Shown here: positions 1,791 to 36,503 of the stretch, piece by piece
How positions within the stretch are numbered: the stretch's first letter is position 1
Layout: each line of letters begins with the position of its first letter
NCBI GenBank assembly: GCA_037903475.1
Contig: JBAJFG010000309.1
Span: 2,225,001 to 2,289,000, forward strand
Direction of reading: 5' to 3'
From: Ancylostoma caninum
Lineage: Eukaryota; Nematoda; Chromadorea; Rhabditida; Ancylostomatidae
Length of the DNA stretch: 64,000 nucleotides
Notes under the pieces: model-generated
Told to the model about the DNA's origin: nothing
Databases searched by the model: none
What the model saw: the letters and a program-made list of their open reading frames with translations, nothing else
Made by a program: the position numbers and the translations under genes

Positions 1791-2384
1791 GGTACGATAC
1801 CGATGGAAGGAAGGTGAGCTAGACGGGCGAGAGTTGACACAGATGAGGTCTGCGCTGGCACGGGTGCTGAGGAAATTATAGGAAACGAGCTACTGGTAAG
1901 GAAGAGATGCGCCGGCCCTCAGTAGTGAGGAACACGTCATTGAACGGGTCCATGGCTGCGTCAGTGGTGCGTCGGCGTCCACGGTAAGGGGGATGCCACT
2001 GGATGGGTCCAGAGCTGCGAGTGCGGTGTGGTGGGGCCCAGTAGCGGAGAACGTGCCACTCGAACGAGTGGCGAGCAAAGCGAGACTAAAGGAAGCCTGA
2101 GAGTTTGGGTTAGCAGGAGGATCAGGCCGGTACTACATAATGGATCGTAGAGGACCCACTCTCTACGAGTGTTCAAGGTCGCAGCGCTTATGCTGTACAG
2201 TTCATTCAAATGACGGGAGAAGGGCCATAGACTGATTCGCTGCCATTTTCAATCAATATCAAGCATGCTTGATAATGTGTACAAATATACCGCGTGAATT
2301 TACGTAAATGCACCAACATTTACTCCCTTCCGAACACCGTATACCCATAACTTTCTCAGAGATTCCGGAACGACGAACACAGAC

Positions 2385-3070
2385 CGAACACGTTCTAGTA
2401 CCACTTAACGAGGTGGAAGCTTATTTTTCGCGCCACGAGCTGCGTTAGCCCCGAAAAGGGTGCGTTTCCGGGGCGATGGACTAATTTGCATGTCTCTCAC
2501 CTAGGATCGCAGCTCAATCTGGGCGCAGGGCTGTGTTCCTACTGTAGGCTTGGGTAAGTAGATGTTTACCCAAACTCATCCAAAAATAGTCCCGAACGAG
2601 TACGCGCTTAACGTGACAGCGCTTGGTAGACTCAGCGGTCCCGCGCTGACCTCCAGATACGCGCCGCACCCACACGCATCCGCGCCGCACGGATCTCGTC
2701 TCACCGATTATTGCACATGGCCACGGTTTTACCCGGGCCTCAGCCGGCCTGACGAGACTCGCAGTGCTCGCCTTGCCTAGGTCGAAGCGGGGACACGACT
2801 AAGCTCTGCTGCTCAACCAACGGCTTATGTATACCACCCAAGAGGCGGGTCAACACTTGGCAAGGAGCAGGTAGAACGCAGGACATGGGGGCAGAACGCA
2901 GGTTGGACGGCTTCACAGTCAATCGGGCAGCAACTAGCCCCCACAACGCAGCCGAAACACGGGGTTTGCTGCTCTTAGCGGTCGTAATGCCGCAGTTCTT
3001 CCCCTTGCAGCAATGTCTGTATTCCATTTCTTGAGGGTGCGGCTTGGCAGATTCTGCTGCGTTGCCCTAT
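2385..3070 (+). repeat. dispersed repeat, copy 1 (partner at 9055-10050)
   Basis: Several blocks occur in the same order in both copies: CCGAACAC at 2386, GCTTATTTTTCGC at 2418, TTTGCATG at 2485, CAATCTGGGCGCAG at 2515, a CAGCCG(G/A)CCT block at 2742, TATGTATACC at 2825, GTAGAACGCAGGACATGG at 2871, CGAAACACGG near 2953 and GCCGCAGTTCT at 2989. The copies are clearly diverged. A TATA-like element and a length near 700 bp would suit a solo LTR, but no TG...CA boundary is convincing. The open frames within it look non-coding. Confidence 0.5.
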
Positions 3071-3879
3071 CCAGTTATCTGAGTTGGCGCATTTCATGAA
3101 AATGAAGATGAGAGGTGGTTGAATCTTGAGAATGGAAAGGAAAGTGTGACTGTAATTTTCAGGACTCAGAAGCCAACTGTATGCCGTAGACTCATCCCCA
3201 AGATCAAGAAGACTGTTTCTGGACAAACACTCATTCCACTAGAAGAATTACTGAGGGATCGGTGGTATATCAAGGCAGGTTTCTCTTCTGCTTAAAAACC
3301 TTACAGAACAATTATAATGAGGGGGTCGTAAATGTTGACACAGTCAAATTATTCTGCAGATGAACAGCGTCCTAGAAAATCTTACGCTTGCGCATCCGAG
3401 ATGGGGGCCACGTTTTAGCGAACACAAAAAATCAATTCTTGTTTGGAGCGAGCTTCGTTCCTGTGAAACCAGTCACTATTTCGCCACCAGACATTGTTGC
3501 CGAGGCGCCACAAGTGAAGCATTTTTGTTCCATGTTGCAAAGAGGTCAGCCTCTGGTGACTTGATACATTTATAAAAAGTGAAGCAGGTTTTAGCCCCCA
3601 AGTGCCATATCAAATTCACTCTTTGTTCGCGATATTATCATTGTATTGAAATTTTCGATGAAAAATTTTATAGAAAATCATACAACTGCAACAGTCGCTG
3701 GTTTTTTGCCATTCTTACAGCAGGAGCTCGACTTCCCTGCTTCAAAAACCTGTGAACTGCGAGGCAAGGGAGTGAGTCGGGCAGTGCTAGAGGTCACTGG
3801 CTTCGGCAAATCGATTCTCGTTCAATAGACATTCTTGTGGTCTGATAATCGGCGCATGGTTAGAGCTAAATTAATGCTA
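3070..3879. other. no recognisable gene
   Basis: AT-rich DNA with scattered open frames of 60-83 residues and no motif or splice pattern that I recognise. Confidence 0.35.
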
Positions 3880-3981
3880 TTAGGCTGGTGAGGAACTCTT
3901 GAGCCGTTTGAGACTTTTTTCTGTTTCATTTTATTACTCAGCATAAAGTGAAATTTGCTCAACAATATAATAAACAGTAAG

Positions 3982-4660
3982 TCACTGCATTGTCCCACCT
4001 AATGGGCAGGTCCGCGGTCTCCTTCTCCCAGAACTGGAGGAGGTGGGAGCCAAAGAAATCGCTGACCGCCCTCTCAACATCGTCAACTTTGGTAAATTTT
4101 TCCTTAGCTCGGAATGCCTTGGAGAAGCAAAATAAATGTCAGTGGAAGGGGCAACGTCAACAGTAGGGTCGGTGGGGAACCGTGACCCAGCCGAGCTACT
4201 CCGATTTTCACTAGACTCTTTAGCTAAATTGCGCCTAGCGTCATCACGACATAGGTGTACTAGAAACGCGTTTCGTTCGTTTTTCTCGAACAGCATCCGC
4301 GACTTTCTCGAGCTGATTTGCGTAGGTTCTATCGGTGACTGTGTGTGTTTGCGGGAGCAGCTCGTAATACAACATTCCGCGCGAATTCCAGAAGTAGCAG
4401 AGGAAACACTTGTTTGGGTGGGGTGCGATTTGACGGATCTTCTCCTCTACGGATCCCCATGTATTAGAATCGTAGAGGACCCAATTCTCATCTCCACTTA
4501 TCGGGTATTCCGAAAACTCTTTTCGGTGCGGGCAGAGTAGGAAAAACTGATTACGGCTTGGAGAACCTCTTGTGGTCTTGACGTCGTAATCAAAATTAGG
4601 AAAGACAATTCGGCTACATATGCCTACTATAGAGAAGCCCCGAGTTTGGTCTACAACTCC
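3982..4660 (-). pseudogene. mariner transposase pseudogene
   Basis: Minus-strand translation from about 4500 gives ISGDENWVLYDS, the block around the first catalytic aspartate, followed by a HPNKCFLCYFWNSRG segment and MLYYELLPQTHTVT, which correspond to the usual mariner order of [TS]GDE-x-W, K-x-x-LC-x-WW and Y-x-ELL. After a frameshift near 4250, the frame reading AFRAKEKFTKVDDVER, AVSDFFGS and LPIRWDNAV matches the mariner C-terminus. The central part with the second and third aspartates is not readable. Transposition in trans would need an intact relative. It is clearly non-functional because the frame changes at least once and there is no N-terminal DNA-binding domain. Confidence 0.7.
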
Positions 4661-5264
4661 CACACGGTAGATCATGGGTACCGATCAATAATCAGAAGTT
4701 CTGGAACTTTCAAAAAAATTGGCTCAAAACCTTCTCACCATCCTAATACATAATGGGCAATTAAAAATTTCTCTGGGAGCTCCTCATTTTTCCCGAGAGC
4801 CCGAACAACAAAAATAAAGCGCTCTCCACGGTGTGGCAGAATGGTGTGATTTCCACAGAGCACTTGGAACTTGTCCCAAAATTCCACCGAATAATGTCCG
4901 CAAACTGTTGATATTTGCAGCCTCAGTGGAAGAAATCCCGCTTCAATTCGCTCCAACTCCAGAGAAAAAAAAAGCATGATCAAAATTTTGTTTTACCAAG
5001 TTTGGTCCCACTGCCTGTGACCGCTCCACAATAAAATGGGGAGGGAAAGTACCAGGGAGAATAAATATGGCCTCGAGATTACTTCAGCCAAATTTGGTTA
5101 GTCTCATGCAACTTCATGGTAAAATTTTTATTCGTGCAGTGCAGTTACCGAGTTTGCATTTTTGAAGGGTTCACTCCGAAATTCATCACATTTTCAAATC
5201 GAGGCGAAAAAATATATGTATTTCACTTTCCAATATGTTCGTGGGATCGTGTCCTTTAGATTAG

Positions 5265-5282
5265 ACTTTAGATTAGACTTTG
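5265..5282. repeat. short tandem duplication
   Basis: A TTTAGATTAGAC unit occurs twice in tandem just upstream of the right end of the mariner element. It looks like simple slippage. Confidence 0.5.
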
Positions 5283-5383
5283 GAACATTATCTAGATATG
5301 CGCAAAGTCTTATCTGTTTTCATTCATTAAAAGCCTTTGAAAATGCCTATGTGAAAACAGCGGAAACTTGTGCTACAACCTAA

Positions 5384-6220
5384 TAGTTTTCCTAAAGGAG
5401 ATCCATCTACATCCAACTACAGGAAATTTTTCACCTCCTCGTCTATCATCCAAGCAATCCTTTAAGGGGCATTTTCTTGCTTGTTACAATTAGGGCTGGA
5501 TCCCGAGGATAACCATCGATTCCGTTCCCAGCGGCCTAGAATCGGTAGTTTTCTCAGGATCCAGCTGAATGCGACCAGCTGCACGAGGATGCGCACCGAA
5601 AGGAGCAGAAATCGAGTGGGACTCAGTCAAGAAATCGTCCGGCAACAGTTCTGTGTTCTAAGACGTTGGTGCACTTGTGGTTAACAGCAGCGAACTGCAT
5701 GGACACACTTTAAAGAGAGCGCCCAAGCTCAGGGTCAGTTTGGTATCCGAAGAATGACGATGACGATAAATATGATATTCGTCTCACTCAAAAGTGCAGA
5801 AAACCCTTTTCCATAACTGTTTCATTTCGGGGAAGTAGAGCAGAGTGCACATAGGTAGCTCGTACATGGAGTTGTGCAACGATCTATCGAGCTATTGCTG
5901 TGCTTCTGTGGCCACTCCATGCCGGCATGCGCGCAGAGCCTTGCACTCGACCTCTCGTTTGTACAGCGATATGACATTTTTGAGTTCACGCTCGCTCATC
6001 ACCATAAATTGAATGTTCATAGATTCGGACGTTTGGAACGACGGTGACTTTTACCCACTCTTGGCGGATGCAGGCTTCTGGCAGATAGTCGCGCATGGAG
6101 CAGGAATACTTGCTGAAGGTGCGGATGGAGCAGGAAAACCTGCTGTGAGCGCTCATGAGGCAGGGTATATGCAGGTATCCCTATGTACTGTTTTTGTTTT
6201 CTCCATTGCCAAGTGGTAAC
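5384..6220. other. no recognisable gene
   Basis: No exon chain was found. Near 6090-6160 there are imperfect direct repeats of a GGAGCAGGAA(T/A)A motif spaced about 33 bp apart. The reading frame across 6013-6219 simply follows those repeats. Confidence 0.35.
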
Positions 6221-6227
6221 CGAAGTG

Positions 6228-6446
6228 TATATAAGCCGGCAGACGGCTGTGAAAGCTTAGTCTAGTCTCCGCTCTGGCTGGCCCAGGGTACCAGCCAGAT
6301 AAGGTGCGTGGGATGTGGTCGCGTGTCTACGCGGCGCGGATGGGAAGATCCCCCTCGCCGCAGATGTGGAGCGCTGATGCAGGGAGCACATACGTGCCCG
6401 GCAAACTCATTTTTGCACTATTTTTGTACTCACCGGTTGCAATAAA
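6228..6446 (+). promoter_or_regulatory. TATA box to AATAAA block, possible solo LTR
   Basis: TATATAAG at 6228-6235 is followed by a GC-rich 200-bp stretch and then AATAAA at 6441-6446. A promoter and a polyadenylation signal about 200 bp apart with no open frame between them is the usual layout of an LTR U3-R-U5. No flanking target duplication or TG...CA ends were established, so a small non-coding gene or chance remain possible. Confidence 0.25.
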
Positions 6447-6939
6447 ACATGACCTGCTTTAATCCTGCCATTCCCGTTGTAGGATCACGGCAGGTCGCAT
6501 GCAAGATAAGGAGCAACTAACGGCGGAATAGGCGCGCCAACTCCGCCCACTTTTGCTTTTGTCCCGCAGTGCTACGCTGAAAGAAACGGAGTGGGCCGGC
6601 GCTCCAAACGCCCAAATCTCTGTCGCCCGAGTGGATGTTCGTTGACTTTTATGGCTACCCCTTATTTGGCGCCATTCTACTTTCATGAACCCAAAGATTC
6701 CTCGGAGATTTTTGGGTAAACTTGGCACAAGGGGTGAAAGTTTGTCTGACCTTCTGAGCGCTTATATCGTATTCATTTTGTACCGTAACCCCCTTTTTTG
6801 GGATCACAGAAGGTGTGCTATAGATATGGTACTTTACGAAATCCTCTCAAATCTTGTTTAATGGAGTTTTTGACGCTGATGTCAACATTATCTTGTATGC
6901 CGTCTCCGTTTTCTTCGCATCTGGAACTTGCTTTTCCAA

Positions 6940-14637: not shown

Positions 14638-14799
14638 TATAGGGCAATTTATACTGGATGCCTGCGACTGACGTGCGTCTATATGATGAAGAATAGGGCC
14701 CAGTCGCATAGCAGTCGCATCTCAGTCGCAGCTCAGACGCACGCGTTTGCGGCTTTGCGGCTTCCGCGCGTTCTTTTGATTGAGAACGTACATGCCGTC
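14638..14799 (+). mobile_element. left half of a MITE split by the giant palindrome
   Basis: The outer end TATAGGGCAATTTATACT at 14638 is the inverted counterpart of AGTGTAAATTGCCCTTATA ending at 25015. The inner parts are continuous in the relative at 1600-1790. The 10.1-kb palindrome therefore sits inside a roughly 240-bp TIR element. An exact target duplication for the palindrome could not be defined. Confidence 0.6.
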
Positions 14800-15052
14800 T
14801 CAGACATTCGTGCGGGAGTCCCGCCTGACAAAATGATGTCTCCCGCTCGAGGGTGAGCGGGAGACAACTAAAAATCAGAGTTTTTGTCCCGCAACATCCC
14901 GATTTTGTCCCGCAAGCTCCGCGGGAGTCCCGATTTTGTCCCGAAATTAAAGCAGCTATTTGTTTGAACAGGTTTCCCATTGAACTACGACCTGGATAGC
15001 TGTTTAGAGCATATATTCGTCTCAATCCATGAGCTACAGTACGAGAGACATT

Positions 15053-16003
15053 TTATTGACTGAATGGAAATGTGTCAGTACAATATACAGGCAAACAGTA
15101 ATTGCATCGTAACAAACAACAACAATAACACCACACGTGAGCAGGTGGCAGTAACACAACATTTACACAACATTTACATAAAAAGAGAATCACGATTACA
15201 CCTCCCGCGTACTGATGCGCCGTACCCCTCACGCGTCGCGGATGCTTAGTTGGGCACTGTGGCCGGTAAATGATGCCTAGATTTTTCTTTTTGACTTCAG
15301 TTTTCGCGACTATTTTCATTACGTGTGAGCATTCATGACTAACAGTTCAAGTTCACGTAACACTACTTCAGTTCTGCTACTTTGGTTCGAGGAAGTTGTC
15401 GTCTTTGAACTTTTTTTTAAAGAAAGTCGTCTTTGAATTTTTTTCTTTAAAGAGACGTTCTTTTACCACTGCTTATTGGGAAGCCGATGTGTTGCATAGG
15501 CTGCAGTACTCACAGTGCTTTATGACCACTTTTCTGCTCTCTACGAAATTTTTTAGGTGAAATGTGTGGGGACAGTTCATCATGCGTCCGGTGTCGAAGT
15601 TATTGACGCCCGACAAGAGTTGCGTCTTCTTGAAATATCTGCTAAGCTGCTAAACTTCTTGTCAACTCAAAAATTTTAGGAAAGATGCCCCCACATAAAG
15701 AAAACATCGTTGTACCTACAAGTAAAAGAGAAATCCTGGCAACAATCGCCAACTACAGCGCCCAGATAATCAGCCGCGCTGCGTCGGAGGTGCGGTGCGC
15801 CAATTCCAATTGACGTTCCCTCTGCAGCACACAATGAGGTTTGTGGTGTCACTCATCCTCTGATGTACAGATGACTCTGCGTTTCTGGAAACATTTTGTT
15901 CACCAACATTAAAACAAAATATTAGGTCTTCAAATATGGAATGTCTGATTTTGACTGAGAAGGTTCCGGGTTCTTTTTCATGAACAAAATGCGAAACGAG
16001 CAA
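15053..16003 (-). CDS. two hypothetical ORFs in left arm (88 and 77 aa)
   Basis: Minus frames at 15053-15319 (88 aa, cysteine-rich middle) and 15770-16003 (77 aa) are identical in translation to plus frames at 24419-24685 and 23735-23968 in the other arm. The identity reflects the duplication, not selection. No domain recognised. The opposite strand of the first contains a polyasparagine run produced by an AAC/AAT repeat. They are listed because they are the open frames in this stretch; the evidence for real genes is weak. Confidence 0.15.
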
Positions 16004-16478
16004 TCCAAATATTCTTCAATACTACTGGCACAGCAGCCTAGAAGTGTAAGAAGCTAATGAGCGATCAAGTGGCGAGGAGTGTATTCAATATTATGTTCAG
16101 ATTTTTGAAAATAACGCTCTTGCTATCGAGGAAAGGCCAATCTCTGTAAGGAGATGTAGTCAAGTAAAACAGGATTGACGAACACGATGTGTGAGGAGTG
16201 GATTTCCATTCCTGTTCCTCTGGTTCAAGCAGCGTCGTTTTGTGAAATATTGTCAGTAATCGGAATTAATCTTTAAAGATGGCAGTAAACCCCTAGTACC
16301 CTGTTTTTCAAGCTCTACCCACTTTGCCTTGTCGATCTGCTTCAAATAGCTCAATACTAAATTTAAATGAACGCCAAACTTTGCTGCTTCTGAAGACCAA
16401 GTGCGGGACACCTATACGCTTCCTCTTCAACTCCTTTTCATCCTTATAAACGTTGATTATAAGGCTCACCTCATAGCC

Positions 16479-17097
16479 TCATATCATCTGAGCAGAACTT
16501 CCCAAACAAACGCTGTTTAGCGCATATATGTACATATTAGCATAATGTCCCCTTAACACTGAAATAAGTAATGTTTCCAGCTCTCCCGGCTTTAAAGCCC
16601 CGAAGATGGAAACCACCTTCGACACTGACAATTTTCGGTCATTGAGTAGTCTCACTAAAAGTACGTTTAAACAGAAATTTGGGAGCCGTTCAATGACCAA
16701 GGAGCTGATTTTAGAAGAGGAAGGATGCCGCTTCACAAAGAAATAAGATGGGAAGTGATCTAGTAAACCTCTAGACCTCTTGATAGTTAGACTTCTACAT
16801 TTTCTACATGTATCATGCAGGAATCTCGGGCGCTGTGAAAAATCTGGGAGGATCATCTAATTCCTTCGATATTCACAAGGATAAGAAATCACAGTTATTG
16901 TCCTTCAACTGCTTCATCTGAGTGCAGCCACTACATACACGGGAGAAGTAATGTCGAAGAAAGTCCATAACGTGTAAGAAATGCTTTTCCTTCCCAGCTC
17001 GAGCTGGTAACGTCCATTTTTCTAGGAGGTCACGCATGTTCATCTCCTGAATCAATGATATTTGGCACTTAAACTGGTAATGAATAGGGAACTTCAC
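16479..17097 (-). CDS. hypothetical proteins of the palindrome arm (125 and 74 aa)
   Basis: The 125-aa frame (16479-16856) and the 74-aa frame (16873-17097) lie 16 bp apart on the minus strand and could be parts of one exon-split product. The 74-aa product contains a CSGCTQMK segment, and the 125-aa product has DTCRKCRS near its N-terminus, giving CxxC pairs that could bind metal. The composition is basic. After the stop of the 125-aa frame, a further lysine- and arginine-rich frame continues for about 40 codons. If the arm was once an autonomous transposon, this is the most gene-like place to look. No similarity was recognised, and the same frames recur at 22641-23259 (+). Confidence 0.3.
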
Positions 17098-17611
17098 CTT
17101 ACAACTTCAACTTACCTTACAACTTCACCTTCACACTTGTAGATTTGAGGGTGTGCTGAGGTTCTTTTTCAATATCCCATCGACTCTCTGTGAGTTTTTG
17201 ATCAGCAAAACAGATCAGGAGTAATTGAGCGTGAAATAAGCGAGAACGTATAATTCTGCCAAAGCGCTGCTGAGTCGCCGACTGATAAGGTTTCCCGAAA
17301 ACCCCTTAAGAATGATGAATATAGGAGCTATCAGGACAGTACTCGAAAATGTGATAAGGCCTCACATTCCCTTGCTAACCTGTGATCTAATCCTCAAGAA
17401 AATGTTTCTAAATAGATTTACACTCATTCGCATCTAGAACTGAATATGCAGTAGTTTTGAGAATATTCTAACACTGGCTAGCATACAGGTACTCGCGGAA
17501 AAGTCCCAAATCCTGCTTTATTCGTGATATTCAATATCATCAAATTTTCGACAAATTTAATGGTTCGTTCCTGTCCCTAGTTCCAGCTGGTAGTGAGAGC
17601 ACACCAATAAC

Positions 17612-18194
17612 GTTAGAGGCAGCATCGCACATCGGAATTGTTTTTGAGATTTCAACGTTAGAGGAATCTCCAGGAGCTGATGATCACAACGGTTTATGTG
17701 ATTCTATGCAAGACTGCTGAAAAACCCCATTTCACAGCCTCATTTTTTAAGGAGCCTTTGGGCGGAGCCGTAGGCTGAGCTAAGTAACTTCCCGAATAAT
17801 TCAGTCTAGGGCAAGCAAGTTATTACGTAGGACGGAAACCCTGTAATCCCGCATTGGCTTCGGGACTAAGGCGGAAATGCAGGGTTTCCGGGCCATGAAC
17901 TCCTTTGTTATTCACACATGGAAGACAGTTTCTATTCTGTCAGGGATTTGGTGAGGAACTCTCACGAGGAATGGGAACTTCCTTAGGAGGTGCGTTTCTA
18001 GACTGAATTATTCGGGAAGTTACTTAGCTCAGCCCCCGGTTCCGCCGAGAGGCTCCCACAAATTGAGGCTCTGAAATGAGGTTTTCCAGCAGTCTTGCAT
18101 AAAATCACATAAACCGTTGTGATCACAAGCTCCTGGAGATTCTTCTAACGTTGAAATCTCAAAAACAATTCTGATGTACGATGCTGCCTCTAAC
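17612..18194. mobile_element. nested palindromic MITE in left arm (583 bp)
   Basis: The outer ends are GTTAGAGGCAGCATCG (17612) and CGATGCTGCCTCTAAC (18194). The arms of about 200 bp pair with small mismatches (for example CATCGGAATTGTTTTTGAGA against TCTCAAAAACAATTCTGATG) and enclose about 180 bp. A second inner inverted block, CTTCCCGAATAATTCAGTCT, lies near 17788 with its reverse near 18000. The mirrored copy is at 21544-22126. Confidence 0.85.
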
Positions 18195-18507
18195 AGCAGA
18201 TTGTTAAAAAGAACAATGGCTAATCAAACCATCACTTCACTTGTTTCCATACGTAGATACAAATCTTCTATACCCAATTTGAGAAAACTGACGATATTGG
18301 AGCTCTATTTTTTATTCCTACTCAAACTGACTCTGTGCCAATGGTAAGCAAGAGCAACGAAACTTCATATATCCTCAACACTTACCCGAACTTGGTTTGG
18401 ACTGCTCATCCTTGGGCTAAGATATGCAAAGATCTTGTGGTGTAAAATCGTGTGTGTGCTAAGTATGTCGCCGCCATTATCATGACTTATAATAACGGGC
18501 TTACTTT

Positions 18508-18540
18508 GTGTGTCACGTGTGTGTGTCTGTGTGTGTAGAA
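18508..18540 (+). repeat. (GT)n microsatellite
   Basis: GTGT runs interrupted by CAC and CT lie just before the minisatellite. The reverse copy is near 21197-21230. Confidence 0.7.
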
Positions 18541-18594
18541 CGAAATTCGAGGGCGTGGCTTAGAGTGATGCCGACCACTCCACCATTACATGAA

Positions 18595-18965
18595 GGGTGC
18601 GCCGGCACCCAAAGTGGGGGGAGACGGGTCCACTGCTGTGATAAGGGTGCGCCGGCGCCCAAAGTGGGGGGAGACGGGTCCACTGCTGTGATAAGGGTGC
18701 GTCGGCGCCCAAAGTGGGGAGGGACGGGTCCACGGCTGTGATAAGGGTGCGCCGGCGCCCAAAGTGGGGGGAGACGGGTCCACTGCTGTAATAGAGGTGC
18801 GTCGGCGCCCAAAGTGGGGGGAGACGGGTCACTACTGTGATAAGGGTGCGTCCGCGCCCAAAGCCCAAAGTGGGGCGGAGACGGGTCCACTGCTGTAATA
18901 GAGGTGCGTCGGCGCCCAAAGTGGGGGGAGACGGGTCCACTGCTGTGATAGGGCTGCGTCTGCGC
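18595..18965 (+). repeat. 50-bp minisatellite, left arm (about 7 units)
   Basis: The unit contains GCCGGCGCCCAAAGTGGGG and GACGGGTCCACTGCTGTGA and repeats at exactly 50 bp (gccggc at 18601 and 18651), with point variants. One unit is distorted by a duplicated CCCAAAG near 18858. All the overlapping proline/tryptophan-rich frames here are translations of the array and not genes. The array is about 105 bp longer than its partner at 20875-21150. Confidence 0.9.
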
Positions 18966-19911
18966 TCAAAAGTGGAGGAGCGCCTGAAAATATAGCTACC
19001 GATGCAGGAGGGGTGCACCGGTGTTCACTACTCAGGGAAATGTCACGAGTTAGGTCCATATTTGTTAAATCGATTCGATGGCGTCTAACATCAATCGTTA
19101 GAAAAACTAGATGTCAGACCACTGCGCGGATTAGTATGCAATCAGTGTGAATCCTTCCTCCTTACGTCCTCCCCCGCGTTCTTCTCTTCTCATTTGTTTA
19201 TGAACACACCGCACCCTCCACTTTTATATGTTCTAACTGACTCTTATCACTTGACCAGTTATAACAAACAAAGAACGATAGATCATTTACTGCGGTCAAT
19301 CCAGGTTGAACCGGTTATATGTAGTTACAAAAAGCATTTTCCGTTGAGCAAATGATGAAATTGCTTCGAGAATATTAATCCTCTTTGATAAGTGCATTTT
19401 CACATGAGAAAAACCAATGGAAAGGGTGTGGGACACATTATAGCAAAAATGTGGAATAGCTGTGACTTTATTTGAATGAAGAAGGGATGAAGCCATGCGA
19501 GCGAAGCGAGCATTGGGAAAAGTCTGGAAGTCCGGCGTCAGCCGGACGGCCAGACTGGTACATAGATAACTAAGGTGGTCACCCACTTGATACTGGAGAA
19601 AGTTCAAAGAATGATCCTTACTATTGTACTGCATTGCACTTCTGACATGGCAAGTGTTATCTCACAAGATAGGTCCTATTCCATTTCGCATTCAGATAGT
19701 TCCCTATTCCATTTCGCATCTTAGCTTCACGGTTGGTTCACTTTAGATAAGCGGTGATAAGTCTGCGATCTGGTGTGAGTTGCAATCCCGCAACATTATG
19801 GGGATAATCCCGCAACAAAACCAAAATCATGTCTCCCGCCGGAGCTCCCGATTTTGTCCCGCAAATGATAAGAGCCCGTTTTGTCAGGCGGGACTCCCAC
19901 CTATGTTCTGA

Positions 19912-19931
19912 ATTGAAGACCGGTCAACACC
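19912..19931. other. 20-bp central spacer of the giant palindrome
   Basis: Only these 20 bases separate the terminal TTCTGA of the left unit from the initial TCAGAC of the right unit. The terminal 12 bases or so of the two inner ends also differ from each other, so perfect symmetry begins about 15 bp from each inner end. Confidence 0.8.
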
Positions 19932-20874
19932 TCAGACATTCGTGCGGGAGTCCCACCTGACAAAACGGGCTCTTATCATTTGCGGAACAAAATCGGGAGC
20001 TCCGGCGGGAGACATGATTTTGGTTTTGTTGCGAGATTATCCCGATAATGTTGCGGGATTGCAATTCACACCAGATCGCAGACTTATCACCGCTTATCCA
20101 AAGTGAACCAACCGCGAAGCTAAGATGCGAAATGGAATAGGGAACTATCTGAATGCGAAATGGAATAGGACCTATCTTGTGAGATAACACTTGCCATGTC
20201 AGAAGTGCAATGCAGTACAATAGTAAGGATCATTCTTTGAACTTTCTCCAGTATCAAGTGGGTGACCACCTTAGTTATCTATGTACCAGTCTGGCCGTCC
20301 GGCTGACGCCGGACTTCCAGACTTTTCCCAATGCTCGCTTCGCTCGCATGGCTTCATCCCTTCTTCATTCAAATAAAGTCACAGCTATTCCACATTTTTG
20401 CTATAATGTGTCCCACACCCTTTCCATTGGTTTTTCTCATGTGAAAATGCACTTATCAAAGAGGATTAATATTCTCGAAGCAATTTCATCATTTGCTCAA
20501 CGGAAAATGCTTTTTGTAACTACATATAACCGGTTCAACCTGGATTGACCGCAGTAAATGATCTATCGTTCTTTGTTTGTTATAACTGGTCAAGTGATAA
20601 GAGTCAGTTAGAACATATAAAAGTGGAGGGTGCGGTGTGTTCATAAACAAATGAGAAGAGAAGAACGCGGGGGAGGACGTAAGGAGGAAGGATTCACACT
20701 GATTGCATACTAATCCGCGCAGTGGTCTGACATCTAGTTTTTCTAACGATTGATGTTAGACGCCATCGAATCGATTTAACAAATATGGACCTAACTCGTG
20801 ACATTTCCCTGAGTAGTGAACACCGGTGCACCCCTCCTGCATCGGTAGCTATATTTTCAGGCGCTCCTCCACTT

Positions 20875-21150
20875 TTGAGCGCAGACGCAGCCCTATCACA
20901 GCAGTGGACCCGTCTCCCCCCACTTTGGGCGCCGACGCACCTCTATTACAGCAGTGGACCCGTCTCCCCCCACTTTGGGCGCCGGCGCACCCTTATCACA
21001 GCCGTGGACCCGTCCCTCCCCACTTTGGGCGCCGACGCACCCTTATCACAGCAGTGGACCCGTCTCCCCCCACTTTGGGCGCCGGCGCACCCTTATCACA
21101 GCAGTGGACCCGTCTCCCCCCACTTTGGGTGCCGGCGCACCCTTCATGTA
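20875..21150 (-). repeat. 50-bp minisatellite, right arm (about 5 units)
   Basis: Same unit as 18595-18965 in reverse orientation, with two fewer units. The proline-rich frames of 65-132 residues here are array translations. Confidence 0.9.
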
Positions 21151-21543
21151 ATGGTGGAGTGGTCGGCATCACTCTAAGCCACGCCCTCGAATTTCGTTCT
21201 ACACACACAGACACACACACGTGACACACAAAGTAAGCCCGTTATTATAAGTCATGATAGTGGCGGCGACATACTTAGCACACACACGATTTTACACCAC
21301 AAGATCTTTGCATATCTTAGCCCAAGGATGAGCAGTCCAAACCAAGTTCGGGTAAGTGTTGAGGATATATGAAGTTTCGTTGCTCTTGCTTACCATTGGC
21401 ACAGAGTCAGTTTGAGTAGGAATAAAAAATAGAGCTCCAATATCGTCAGTTTTCTCAAATTGGGTATAGAAGATTTGTATCTACGTATGGAAACAAGTGA
21501 AGTGATGGTTTGAATTAGCCATTGTTCTTTTTAACAATCTGCT

Positions 21544-22126
21544 GTTAGAGGCAGCATCGTACATCAGAATTGTTTTTGAGATTTCAACGTTAGAAGAATC
21601 TCCAGGAGCTTGTGATCACAACGGTTTATGTGATTTTATGCAAGACTGCTGGAAAACCTCATTTCAGAGCCTCAATTTGTGGGAGCCTCTCGGCGGAACC
21701 GGGGGCTGAGCTAAGTAACTTCCCGAATAATTCAGTCTAGAAACGCACCTCCTAAGGAAGTTCCCATTCCTCGTGAGAGTTCCTCACCAAATCCCTGACA
21801 GAATAGAAACTGTCTTCCATGTGTGAATAACAAAGGAGTTCATGGCCCGGAAACCCTGCATTTCCGCCTTAGTCCCGAAGCCAATGCGGGATTACAGGGT
21901 TTCCGTCCTACGTAATAACTTGCTTGCCCTAGACTGAATTATTCGGGAAGTTACTTAGCTCAGCCTACGGCTCCGCCCAAAGGCTCCTTAAAAAATGAGG
22001 CTGTGAAATGGGGTTTTTCAGCAGTCTTGCATAGAATCACATAAACCGTTGTGATCATCAGCTCCTGGAGATTCCTCTAACGTTGAAATCTCAAAAACAA
22101 TTCCGATGTGCGATGCTGCCTCTAAC
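21544..22126. mobile_element. nested palindromic MITE in right arm (583 bp)
   Basis: Mirror copy of 17612-18194, with the same length and the same terminal GTTAGAGGCAGCATCG / CGATGCTGCCTCTAAC. Confidence 0.85.
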
Positions 22127-22640
22127 GTTATTGGTGTGCTCTCACTACCAGCTGGAACTAGGGACAGGAACGAACCATTAAATTTGTCGAAAATTTGATG
22201 ATATTGAATATCACGAATAAAGCAGGATTTGGGACTTTTCCGCGAGTACCTGTATGCTAGCCAGTGTTAGAATATTCTCAAAACTACTGCATATTCAGTT
22301 CTAGATGCGAATGAGTGTAAATCTATTTAGAAACATTTTCTTGAGGATTAGATCACAGGTTAGCAAGGGAATGTGAGGCCTTATCACATTTTCGAGTACT
22401 GTCCTGATAGCTCCTATATTCATCATTCTTAAGGGGTTTTCGGGAAACCTTATCAGTCGGCGACTCAGCAGCGCTTTGGCAGAATTATACGTTCTCGCTT
22501 ATTTCACGCTCAATTACTCCTGATCTGTTTTGCTGATCAAAAACTCACAGAGAGTCGATGGGATATTGAAAAAGAACCTCAGCACACCCTCAAATCTACA
22601 AGTGTGAAGGTGAAGTTGTAAGGTAAGTTGAAGTTGTAAG

Positions 22641-23259
22641 GTGAAGTTCCCTATTCATTACCAGTTTAAGTGCCAAATATCATTGATTCAGGAGATGAAC
22701 ATGCGTGACCTCCTAGAAAAATGGACGTTACCAGCTCGAGCTGGGAAGGAAAAGCATTTCTTACACGTTATGGACTTTCTTCGACATTACTTCTCCCGTG
22801 TATGTAGTGGCTGCACTCAGATGAAGCAGTTGAAGGACAATAACTGTGATTTCTTATCCTTGTGAATATCGAAGGAATTAGATGATCCTCCCAGATTTTT
22901 CACAGCGCCCGAGATTCCTGCATGATACATGTAGAAAATGTAGAAGTCTAACTATCAAGAGGTCTAGAGGTTTACTAGATCACTTCCCATCTTATTTCTT
23001 TGTGAAGCGGCATCCTTCCTCTTCTAAAATCAGCTCCTTGGTCATTGAACGGCTCCCAAATTTCTGTTTAAACGTACTTTTAGTGAGACTACTCAATGAC
23101 CGAAAATTGTCAGTGTCGAAGGTGGTTTCCATCTTCGGGGCTTTAAAGCCGGGAGAGCTGGAAACATTACTTATTTCAGTGTTAAGGGGACATTATGCTA
23201 ATATGTACATATATGCGCTAAACAGCGTTTGTTTGGGAAGTTCTGCTCAGATGATATGA
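22641..23259 (+). CDS. hypothetical proteins of the palindrome arm, right copy
   Basis: The plus frames 22641-22865 (74 aa) and 22882-23259 (125 aa) are residue-for-residue the same as the minus frames in 16479-17097. Downstream, about 23290-23400 reads as a lysine- and arginine-rich continuation in another frame and ends at a TTTAG that could be a splice acceptor. This suggests, without proving, a multi-exon gene carried by the element. No known family recognised. Confidence 0.3.
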
Positions 23260-24938
23260 GGCTATGAGGTGAGCCTTATAATCAACGTTTATAAGGATGA
23301 AAAGGAGTTGAAGAGGAAGCGTATAGGTGTCCCGCACTTGGTCTTCAGAAGCAGCAAAGTTTGGCGTTCATTTAAATTTAGTATTGAGCTATTTGAAGCA
23401 GATCGACAAGGCAAAGTGGGTAGAGCTTGAAAAACAGGGTACTAGGGGTTTACTGCCATCTTTAAAGATTAATTCCGATTACTGACAATATTTCACAAAA
23501 CGACGCTGCTTGAACCAGAGGAACAGGAATGGAAATCCACTCCTCACACATCGTGTTCGTCAATCCTGTTTTACTTGACTACATCTCCTTACAGAGATTG
23601 GCCTTTCCTCGATAGCAAGAGCGTTATTTTCAAAAATCTGAACATAATATTGAATACACTCCTCGCCACTTGATCGCTCATTAGCTTCTTACACTTCTAG
23701 GCTGCTGTGCCAGTAGTATTGAAGAATATTTGGATTGCTCGTTTCGCATTTTGTTCATGAAAAAGAACCCGGAACCTTCTCAGTCAAAATCAGACATTCC
23801 ATATTTGAAGACCTAATATTTTGTTTTAATGTTGGTGAACAAAATGTTTCCAGAAACGCAGAGTCATCTGTACATCAGAGGATGAGTGACACCACAAACC
23901 TCATTGTGTGCTGCAGAGGGAACGTCAATTGGAATTGGCGCACCGCACCTCCGACGCAGCGCGGCTGATTATCTGGGCGCTGTAGTTGGCGATTGTTGCC
24001 AGGATTTCTCTTTTACTTGTAGGTACAACGATGTTTTCTTTATGTGGGGGCATCTTTCCTAAAATTTTTGAGTTGACAAGAAGTTTAGCAGCTTAGCAGA
24101 TATTTCAAGAAGACGCAACTCTTGTCGGGCGTCAATAACTTCGACACCGGACGCATGATGAACTGTCCCCACACATTTCACCTAAAAAATTTCGTAGAGA
24201 GCAGAAAAGTGGTCATAAAGCACTGTGAGTACTGCAGCCTATGCAACACATCGGCTTCCCAATAAGCAGTGGTAAAAGAACGTCTCTTTAAAGAAAAAAA
24301 TTCAAAGACGACTTTCTTTAAAAAAAAGTTCAAAGACGACAACTTCCTCGAACCAAAGTAGCAGAACTGAAGTAGTGTTACGTGAACTTGAACTGTTAGT
24401 CATGAATGCTCACACGTAATGAAAATAGTCGCGAAAACTGAAGTCAAAAAGAAAAATCTAGGCATCATTTACCGGCCACAGTGCCCAACTAAGCATCCGC
24501 GACGCGTGAGGGGTACGGCGCATCAGTACGCGGGAGGTGTAATCGTGATTCTCTTTTTATGTAAATGTTGTGTAAATGTTGTGTTACTGCCACCTGCTCA
24601 CGTGTGGTGTTATTGTTGTTGTTTGTTACGATGCAATTACTGTTTGCCTGTATATTGTACTGACACATTTCCATTCAGTCAATAAAATGTCTCTCGTACT
24701 GTAGCTCATGGATTGAGACGAATATATGCTCTAAACAGCTATCCAGGTCGTAGTTCAATGGGAAACCTGTTCAAACAAATAGCTGCTTTAATTTCGGGAC
24801 AAAATCGGGACTCCCGCGGAGCTTGTGGGACAAAATCGGGATGTTGCGGGACAAAAACTCTGATTTTTAGTTGTCTCCCGCTCACCCTCGAGCGGGAGAC
24901 ATCATTTTGTCAGCCGGGACTCCCGCACGAATGTCTGA

Positions 24939-25015
24939 GTCGAAACTCCCTTGCAAATGGATGCGTGCGACTGATGCGCGACTGACGCACGCAGCTAGTG
25001 TAAATTGCCCTTATA
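24939..25015 (+). mobile_element. right half of the MITE split by the giant palindrome
   Basis: AAATGGATGCGTGCGACTGA followed by CTAGTGTAAATTGCCCTTATA completes the element begun at 14638 and matches the unsplit relative at 1720-1780. Confidence 0.6.
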
Positions 25016-35183: not shown

Positions 35184-36503
35184 TTAGGTTGTTGCGAAAA
35201 TAATTGCCGTTTCACGGTATGCTTGAAAAAAAAACTTTTTTTTTGCCAGTTCAACAACTTCAAGCTAATTTGTGCTAGCTCCTGGTAGGGTTTGCTCTGC
35301 TCTTTCAGATGCTTCTTCAATAATCTGGCTAGCTCTTCCCTGGACTTTTTTATAGGGTCGCAAAAAATGGTGAGCCGACGCGATCGAGTGATCATGTTGT
35401 ACGAGTTCAAACTCAGCCATTCTGCAGCGGAAGCAGCCTGTAATACAGCGCTTGCTTTTGGCACGGACTCTCCTTCCGAAAGAACAGTGAGGTGCTGGTT
35501 CGCAAAATTCTCTTCCGGCGATTTTGATCTCGAAGATAAACGCGATCGTGGTCGAAGAATGTCGCTGGACGATCAAGCACTGAGAGCAGCGGTGGAAACG
35601 AAACCCGATACTACTTTTCGTACGTCGGCGGCAGGCCTCGGGGTTCACTATGCTACGGTTTCAAAACATTCCATTGGCATGGTGAGTAAAATGCAAAAGT
35701 GGACACCCCATGATCTGACCGATGACCAGCAATCCACCCGCTACGAGATCTGTTCTAACCTCCCCCACCTACCCCAGAAAAACGAGCCATTTCTTGACCG
35801 TTTAATAACTGCAGATGAAAAATGGCTCCTATTCGATAATAAGAAACGTGGTTATGTATGGGTAGACAAGTTCTGTACCCCTCCAAGCTTCCCTAAACCA
35901 GATCTTCACCCTAGAATGGTTATGTTGACAGTTTGGTGGTGTTGTAAGGGTGTTATTCATTATAGCCTTCTGCAACCTGGTCAGGCTGCTGTTACATCAG
36001 AGTCTTACTGTTCTGACTTAGACCTGATGTATGAAGAGTTGCAACAAGTGTGGCCGGCAGTGGTAAACAGAGGTGGGCCTCTCCTGCTCCAGGATAACGC
36101 TAGGCCTCACACTTCGAAACTCACCCGGCAAAAACTGACGCAGTTAGGCATCGAGGTTCTCGCTCACCCTCCTTACTCTCCAGACCTCTCCCCTACCGAC
36201 TATCACTTTTTCCGGGCTTTCGAAGCTAACCTGCGTCAGCAGTAGTTTCCTGATTTGGAGCATGTTGAAATTGCCTCCCAAGAGTTCTTAAAATCTTGTG
36301 ATCTCAGTTTCTGTTGTAAAGGTTTAAATGAATTACCGGATCGTTGGCAGAGATATGTAGAATCTAGAATCTGAAGGAAGTGCGATTCAACGTCTCTACT
36401 ATGCTGAAGGACATTATTTTGATAAATAAAGTTGGGTTTGAACAGAGTTACAGCATTTTGAACTGGGCTGGCTATTTCGGCAATTAATTTCGCAACAACC
36501 TGA
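35184..36503 (+). mobile_element. near-intact mariner transposon (1320 bp)
   Basis: The left TIR is TTAGGTTGTTGCGAAAATAA and the right end reads TTAATTTCGCAACAACCTGA. The two pair at about 24 of the first 26 positions. TA flanks both sides (35182-35183 and 36504-36505). Size and ends are typical of mariner. It contains a full-length transposase frame with a single in-frame stop. It is the youngest-looking transposon of its kind in the window. The next foldback element begins only 15 bp beyond its right end. Confidence 0.92.
35367..36374 (+). pseudogene. mariner transposase (DD34D), one premature stop
   Basis: The protein cuts and pastes the element by DNA hydrolysis at the TIRs. The start at 35367 (MVSRRDRVIMLYEF) matches the usual mariner N-terminus; an in-frame upstream ATG at 35292 adds 25 residues that are less typical. 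Residues 1-110 hold the paired helix-turn-helix DNA-binding part (SAAEAA...ERTVRCWFAKF, then GRRMSLDD and HYATVSKH). The linker KWTPHDLTDDQ is the conserved WVPHEL motif. Catalytic aspartates are in ITADEKW, LLQDNARPH and YSPDLSPTDYHFF; the last two are separated by 34 residues, which is the DD34D signature of mariner. The frame stops at 36243 (TAG after LRQQ), but continues in frame with FPDLEHVEIA and LPDRWQRYVES to TGA at 36372. The full length would be 335 residues, as normal for the family. The nonsense codon removes only the C-terminal 43 residues. Confidence 0.9.

What the first reader, a model, noticed from the sequence alone, without database searches (positions are those of the whole stretch)
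14800..24938. A 10.1-kb near-perfect palindrome whose edges coincide with transposon-like termini
Two units of 5112 and 5007 bp lie in opposite orientation about a 20-bp spacer. Similarity stops at TCAGA/TCTGA on the outer side, and each arm alone is bounded by related short TIRs. A foldback cloning or sequencing chimera would not be expected to break at element ends. A composite palindromic transposon, or an element that duplicated by inverted transposition into its neighbour, would. Such a structure is strongly cruciform- and hairpin-prone.
Basis: partly seen in the sequence, partly recalled or inferred. Interest (0 to 1): 0.75.

Follow-up and report, generated by a model that had tools for sequence, protein, structure and literature searches.

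The report
Two opposed transposons fused into palindrome
Two separately inserted copies of one small DNA transposon lie tail to tail about 20 bases apart in a probable hookworm genome, and later recombination made them almost identical and turned round the short stretch between them, so a known kind of event explains a striking 10-kb palindrome.

Summary
The 10.1-kb near-palindrome is in the sequence and ends at transposon termini. Best reading: not a composite transposon, nor one element copied into its neighbour. It sits in one copy of a ~250-bp repeat (MITE), whose two halves flank it; other copies of the repeat are uninterrupted there. Two copies of a TIR family with 2-bp target duplications (19 of 21 single copies) inserted in opposite orientation, 15 bp apart. 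The spacer is that 15-bp piece, inverted relative to the flanks; the GT duplication lies crosswise. The arm ends have separate histories: the left tail differs from the C592 copy at 0 of 170 sites, the right tail at 7 of 170. The interior (~4.8 kb, with a nested Helitron whose site is empty in seven other copies) is nearly identical: 65 shared-derived sites against 1 inter-arm difference; ends 0 against 9. So: two independent insertions, then arm-to-arm gene conversion and a spacer flip, as known for TE-mediated inversions and Y palindromes. A fold-back artefact does not fit the flanks. The spacer's orientation could still be an assembly error; raw reads are not available. Known mechanism, unusually clean example; superfamily not assigned.

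The parts
14642..14798 (+). Left half of the target MITE copy (positions 1-161); its last two bases GT are one copy of the target duplication
   Evidence: 94.4% to MITE 1-161; high-copy repeat
14799..19910 (+). Left arm: TIR transposon, head outward (14799), tail inward; inner terminus damaged
14913..19728 (+). Homogenised interior of the left arm: 1 substitution (18477), one 1-nt indel and one 107-bp minisatellite indel against the right arm
18480..19558 (+). Nested Helitron-type element (5' TC, 3' hairpin then CTGG, between A and T) with 50-bp tandem repeats, left arm
   Evidence: site empty in L010, L012, L013, L014 and in C164, C603, C592
19729..19898 (+). Left tail: 0 of 170 differences from the C592 copy; the right tail has 7 of 170 against C592
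   Evidence: 46 mismatches over arm 2580-3660 and 5 of 137 next to the tail against C592
19899..19913 (+). Damaged inner terminus of the left element and its junction with the spacer
19914..19928 (-). Spacer: the 15-bp MITE piece between the two insertion points (MITE 162-176), inverted relative to both flanks
   Evidence: flipped 14-15 of 15 in 23 of 23 MITE copies found, as it stands at best 9-11 of 15
19929..19930 (+). AC, reverse complement of the GT duplication at 14797-14798
19931..24939 (-). Right arm: second copy of the transposon, tail inward with intact TIR, head outward
20286..21257 (-). The same nested Helitron at the same site, right arm (107 bp shorter)
24940..25011 (+). Right half of the target MITE copy (positions 177-248); begins with TC, the duplication of the second insertion
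   Evidence: 98.6% to MITE 177-248

Best explanation
Two independently inserted, probably non-autonomous copies of one TIR family landed 15 bp apart and in opposite orientation in the same MITE copy, which made a tail-to-tail inverted repeat. Recombination between the arms then (a) converted about 4.8 kb of interior, including a nested Helitron, to one sequence and (b) inverted the 15-bp spacer, leaving the GT target duplication crosswise and one inner terminus scarred. Shown here: the two elements, the target, the inverted spacer in this assembly, the different histories of the ends, the uniform interior. Inferred: gene conversion as the agent, its probable direction (right arm to left, because the right arm carries derived variants along its whole length), and a crossover or template switch, probably near the centre, as the cause of the flip.
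For: Single copies have exact 2-bp TSDs in 15 of 17 and 4 of 4 further cases. All 23 MITE copies found in 19 loci are uninterrupted there and match the spacer fully or but for one base only when it is flipped. GT at 14797-14798 equals the reverse complement of AC at 19929-19930. Left tail 0 of 170 from C592, right tail 7 of 170. Interior 65 shared-derived sites against 1 inter-arm difference, ends 0 against 9, Fisher p 8e-11; 5.9 shared-derived sites expected in the ends, P 0.003 (the boundaries were chosen from the data, so both p values are too small). The Helitron is at the same site in both arms, and that site is empty in seven other copies. Passages in PMC3355041 and PMC2775673 give exchanged TSDs as a mark of recombination between opposed TE copies.
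Against: The TC duplication cannot be read at the damaged inner end, so only one of the two TSDs is seen crosswise, and a 2-bp match has a chance of about 1 in 16. Derived variants pair the ends arm by arm (left head 0 of 115 and tail none beyond those shared with C592; right head 2, right tail 3 private and 2 shared with one other copy each), which speaks against a crossover in mid-arm and needs an exchange point near the centre. The left head is not C592-like in particular (2 differences in 115, right head 4). The spacer's orientation rests on the assembly. Whether the inversion and the conversion were one event is unknown.
Confidence: 0.75

Rival explanations
1. Hybrid-element insertion: the two ends of one element on sister chromatids inserted together 15 bp away, giving in one step two identical opposed copies, an inverted spacer and exchanged TSDs.
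For: Predicts the inverted spacer, the crosswise TSD, the identical interior and the shared Helitron. PMC2775673 (passages) says the outcome is strikingly similar to ectopic recombination except that the copies are identical.
Against: The ends do not look like those of one parent: left tail 0 of 170 from C592, right tail 7 of 170; no shared-derived site in the 285 terminal bases, 5.9 expected, P 0.003 with boundaries chosen from the data. It would need later replacement of one tail.
Confidence: 0.1
2. Two independent insertions with gene conversion, but the spacer is not inverted in the animal: the assembler flipped the centre between two nearly identical 4.8-kb stretches.
For: Long, nearly identical arms make the centre's orientation hard to place; derived variants pair arm by arm.
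Against: A contig of 9 Mb among those seen (C164) suggests long reads that could span 10 kb, though the read type is not known. The damaged terminus lies exactly at the spacer junction.
Confidence: 0.1
3. Fold-back cloning or sequencing chimera.
For: Long palindromes are a known artefact class (general knowledge).
Against: The outer flanks are two different halves of one MITE copy with the missing 15 bp in the middle; the arms differ in tail sublineage, by 10 substitutions and by a 107-bp indel; both arms stop at TIRs.
Confidence: 0.02
4. A composite palindromic transposon that moves as a unit.
For: TIRs at both outer ends.
Against: No TSD around the whole (GT and TC); no second pair of whole elements joined tail to tail among 40 scored of 185 candidates. 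The only other match across the centre, C89, is a short copy with an inverted extra terminus.
Confidence: 0.03

Closest known systems
TE-mediated inversions by ectopic recombination (Galileo in Drosophila buzzatii 2z3, PMC2775673; BuT5 in D. mojavensis, PMC3355041; passages seen)
   Same: Two opposed copies of one family flank an inverted segment, with a target duplication found crosswise
   Different: The inverted segment is 15 bp, not a large chromosome segment; the interior is homogenised, so an exchange point cannot be located; only one of the two TSDs is readable crosswise
Human Y-chromosome palindrome P6 (PMC3723533, passages seen)
   Same: Arms above 99.9% alike through gene conversion with multi-kb tracts, and occasional inversion
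   Different: Arms are transposons of 5 kb with a spacer of about 20 bp; one assembly only, so no rates
Template switching between inverted-repeat arms in yeast (PMC8604942, passages seen)
   Same: Gives arm homogenisation and spacer inversion
   Different: Described there for short repeats and spacers of a few bases

Membership tests
TE-mediated inversion by ectopic recombination | Two copies of one TE family in opposite orientation at the ends of the inverted segment | tested here: met
TE-mediated inversion by ectopic recombination | Segment between them inverted relative to the ancestral order | tested here: met
   23 of 23 MITE copies found; depends on the assembly
TE-mediated inversion by ectopic recombination | Exchanged target-site duplications | tested here: inconclusive
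   GT crosswise; inner copy of TC lost in the damaged terminus
TE-mediated inversion by ectopic recombination | Chimeric copies | tested here: inconclusive
   Tail and interior of the left arm have different histories, but derived variants do not pair crosswise
Gene-converted palindrome | Arm interiors more alike than the arm ends | tested here: met
Hybrid-element insertion product | Two flanking copies identical, from one parent | tested here: not met
   tails from different sublineages; later replacement of one tail is not excluded
TIR transposon with 2-bp TSD (superfamily) | Related transposase | not tested
   Only frames under about 160 codons inside the palindrome arm; no search for a transposase partner was made; superfamily left open
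Helitron (nested element) | 5' TC, 3' CTRR after a hairpin, insertion between A and T without TSD (rules recalled) | tested here: met
   the same ends in L008
Helitron (nested element) | Rep-helicase of an autonomous partner | not tested
   no search made

The most novel reading that the evidence does not exclude
A long, closely spaced palindrome that persists in a nematode germline through repeated arm-to-arm conversion, with a 15-bp spacer that flips back and forth and so records recombination at its centre.
Probability: 0.2. Interest if true: 0.5.

Novelty: new member of a known kind. Interest (0 to 1): 0.35.

Why it matters
Long inverted repeats with short spacers are held to be unstable (PMC4057610, passages). 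Here one can be read step by step: target, two insertions, conversion, spacer flip. The known target sequence and the sublineage marks at the arm ends would make it a usable natural marker of palindrome recombination in a nematode. It also warns against reading a palindrome with transposon ends as a new kind of composite transposon.

Tried and rejected
Insertion into hairpin loops as a target rule: mean stem score 4.35 at 17 joined empty sites against 3.70 at 3000 control positions, P 0.05; inconclusive, not claimed.

A second palindrome of the same make. At C164 two tails face outward; the 1186 bases compared are identical and include about 200 bp of flank, the middle is not palindromic, and one pair of 120-base samples further out does not match. 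It is a spaced inverted duplication whose limits were not found, not a repeat of this structure. At C89 one match of 81% spans the centre; read out, it is a short copy that carries an inverted extra copy of its terminus, not two whole elements. The inverted pair at C40 seen lies about 10 kb apart; the first member is a separate 625-bp copy, the second was not read.

Coding capacity: open frames inside the palindrome arm stay under about 160 codons, the longest in the minisatellite; some longer frames in the fetched loci lie in flanks or simple repeats and were not followed. The RNA family scan at gathering threshold and the tRNA scan of the window found nothing. A test of nematode origin by spliced leader RNA did not complete.

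Scripts replaced: the first run of the shared-derived test lost the right arm beyond the Helitron and is replaced. In one search two rows (L068, L069) were in the wrong orientation; one search replaces it. In one search the rows C603 and C149 are not valid (the pattern met the head twice; both were counted); C486 and C619 repeat. So four rows are new, which gives 19 of 21 in all; the two misses are L010 (C486) and L030. In one search rows with fewer than 3 other copies, the Helitron and gaps were left out (3154 interior and 285 end sites counted), four weaker shared sites (SDw) were not counted, and C592's tail was not yet among the copies. Two left-tail variants that look private or nearly so there are shared with C592. 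The one interior substitution (18477, T in the left arm) is also T in C164.

Papers: PMC3355041, PMC2775673, PMC8604942, PMC3723533 and PMC4057610 were seen as passages only; other titles as search listings with starts of abstracts. One search for transposable elements, MITEs and TIRs in Ancylostoma listed three papers, none opened. A search for CMC/Mirage in nematodes listed three, none opened. Helitron end rules are recalled.

Full report
What is there. The window lies in a 348-Mb genome of 638 contigs. A mariner reading frame at 35367-36242 is 88% identical to a protein of the hookworm Ancylostoma ceylanicum, its best hit, so the host is probably a hookworm or near kin; this rests on one mobile gene. 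The inverted arms, 14799-19910 and 19931-24939, are confirmed. Both start at their outer ends with CTCAGACATTCGTGCGGGAGTCCC or one base off, the terminus of a repeat family with many single copies.

The family. In 17 single copies with both ends read, 15 have an exact 2-bp target duplication and none a longer one; four further copies all have one. The misses are L010 and L030. Six copies (L009-L014) are 94.8-96.6% identical to the left arm by substitutions over the parts that align. No long open frame was seen inside the palindrome arm, so the family members here look non-autonomous; the superfamily is open.

The target. The bases left of the palindrome belong to a high-copy repeat (1939 first-look candidates, 40 scored). 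Aligned to an uninterrupted copy from L047, the left flank is MITE 1-161, the right flank is MITE 177-248, and the missing 162-176 is the 15-bp spacer. In 23 of 23 MITE copies found in the 19 loci L047-L065 the spacer matches 14 or 15 of 15 when flipped and at best 9-11 of 15 as it stands; the copies were found with a loose pattern of the uninterrupted stretch, and five of them were also aligned without it. The spacer's core is self-complementary, which explains the partial match. The two insertion points are therefore known: after CCGT (TSD GT) and before TCGAAA (TSD TC). GT is found crosswise, at 14797-14798 and as AC at 19929-19930. The second copy of TC is lost in the damaged left inner terminus.

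History of the arms. Between 14913 and 19728 the arms differ by one substitution, a 1-nt indel and a 107-bp minisatellite indel, while the terminal 115 and 170 bases hold 9 substitutions. Compared with 16 other loci (3 or more at each counted site), the interior has 65 sites where both arms share a state seen in none of the others, against 1 inter-arm difference; the ends have 0 against 9 (Fisher p 8e-11). At the interior rate 5.9 shared sites are expected in the ends (P 0.003). The boundaries were chosen from the data, so these values are too small. The left tail is identical to that of the C592 copy over 170 bases and differs from C603 at 1; the right tail differs from C592 at 7 and from its nearest relatives at 6 (12 tails compared, two of them from one inverted duplication). 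Outside the tail, C592 differs from the left arm at 46 sites over arm 2580-3660 and at 5 of 137 next to the tail, but at only 2 of 156 at the head. So the two elements were most probably separate insertions, and the interior of one was overwritten by the other.

The nested element. Both arms carry a Helitron-type element at the same site: 5' TC, a hairpin and CTGG at the 3' end, between A and T, with 50-bp tandem repeats. The site is empty in L010, L012, L013 and L014 and in C164, C603 and C592. This agrees with copying of the interior, and also with common descent of the arms; the tails decide against common descent.

How the spacer was turned. Recombination between opposed TE copies gives an inverted segment with exchanged target duplications (PMC3355041; PMC2775673). 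Human palindrome P6 shows frequent multi-kb conversion and rare inversion (PMC3723533). Template switching between short inverted-repeat arms gives arm homogenisation and spacer inversion (PMC8604942). Here derived variants pair arm by arm: left head none, left tail only two shared with C592; right head 2, right tail 3 private and 2 shared with one other copy each. A cluster of changes lies at the left inner junction. Both lean to an exchange point near the centre, but this is not proved, and against it the left head is not especially close to C592 (2 of 115; right head 4). Hybrid-element insertion, the best one-step rival, predicts identical copies (PMC2775673) and does not fit the tails unless one was replaced later.

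Other places. Among 40 scored of 185 tail candidates, the window alone matches the whole centre (361 of 361 bases); C89 matches 180 bases across it at 81%, but it is a short copy with an inverted extra terminus. C164 holds a spaced, perfect inverted duplication that includes flank, so this genome or its assembly has other inverted duplications that do not end at element termini.

Limits. No reads could be seen. An assembler could have flipped the centre between two nearly identical 4.8-kb stretches; that would remove the inversion but not the two insertions or the conversion. Searches of the genome score only the best candidates (40 of 255, 40 of 185), so other palindromic pairs may exist.

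Verdict. It is an ordinary pair of insertions made striking by later recombination: a known kind of event on a very small scale.

Noticed in passing
L023 (C603), L029 (C164), L036 (C80): Of 30 loci (29 and the window) whose flanks were compared with the target MITE, three others have the transposon inserted in this MITE family or a divergent relative, and L009 has a MITE piece about 70 bp away. L023 used the same dinucleotide position as the window's second insertion. A preferred target would help explain two insertions 15 bp apart.
   Followed up: partly
L076 and L077 (C164:2698700-2699900 and 2705250-2706450): A perfect inverted duplication, identical over the 1186 bases compared, that includes a transposon tail and about 200 bp of flank; the middle is not palindromic and its limits were not found.
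   Followed up: partly
L081 (C89:100730-101000): A copy of about 230 bp whose terminus is followed by an inverted extra copy of the terminal bases, a small palindromic end.
   Followed up: partly
window 18480-19558 and L008: Abundant Helitron-type family with 50-bp tandem repeats: 4986 first-look candidates for the whole-arm query, most listed matches in this part; ends confirmed in L008.
   Followed up: partly
L010 (C486), 2011-6492: One of two single copies without a 2-bp TSD; joined, its flanks form a stem of GCTCAC and GTGAGC. Possibly a small rearrangement at this site.
   Followed up: no
L021 (C459), about 600-1300: A transposon copy whose interior holds a long run of a 3-base repeat, several hundred bases.
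   Followed up: no
window 35367-36242: Mariner transposase frame, 88% identical to an Ancylostoma ceylanicum protein.
   Followed up: partly
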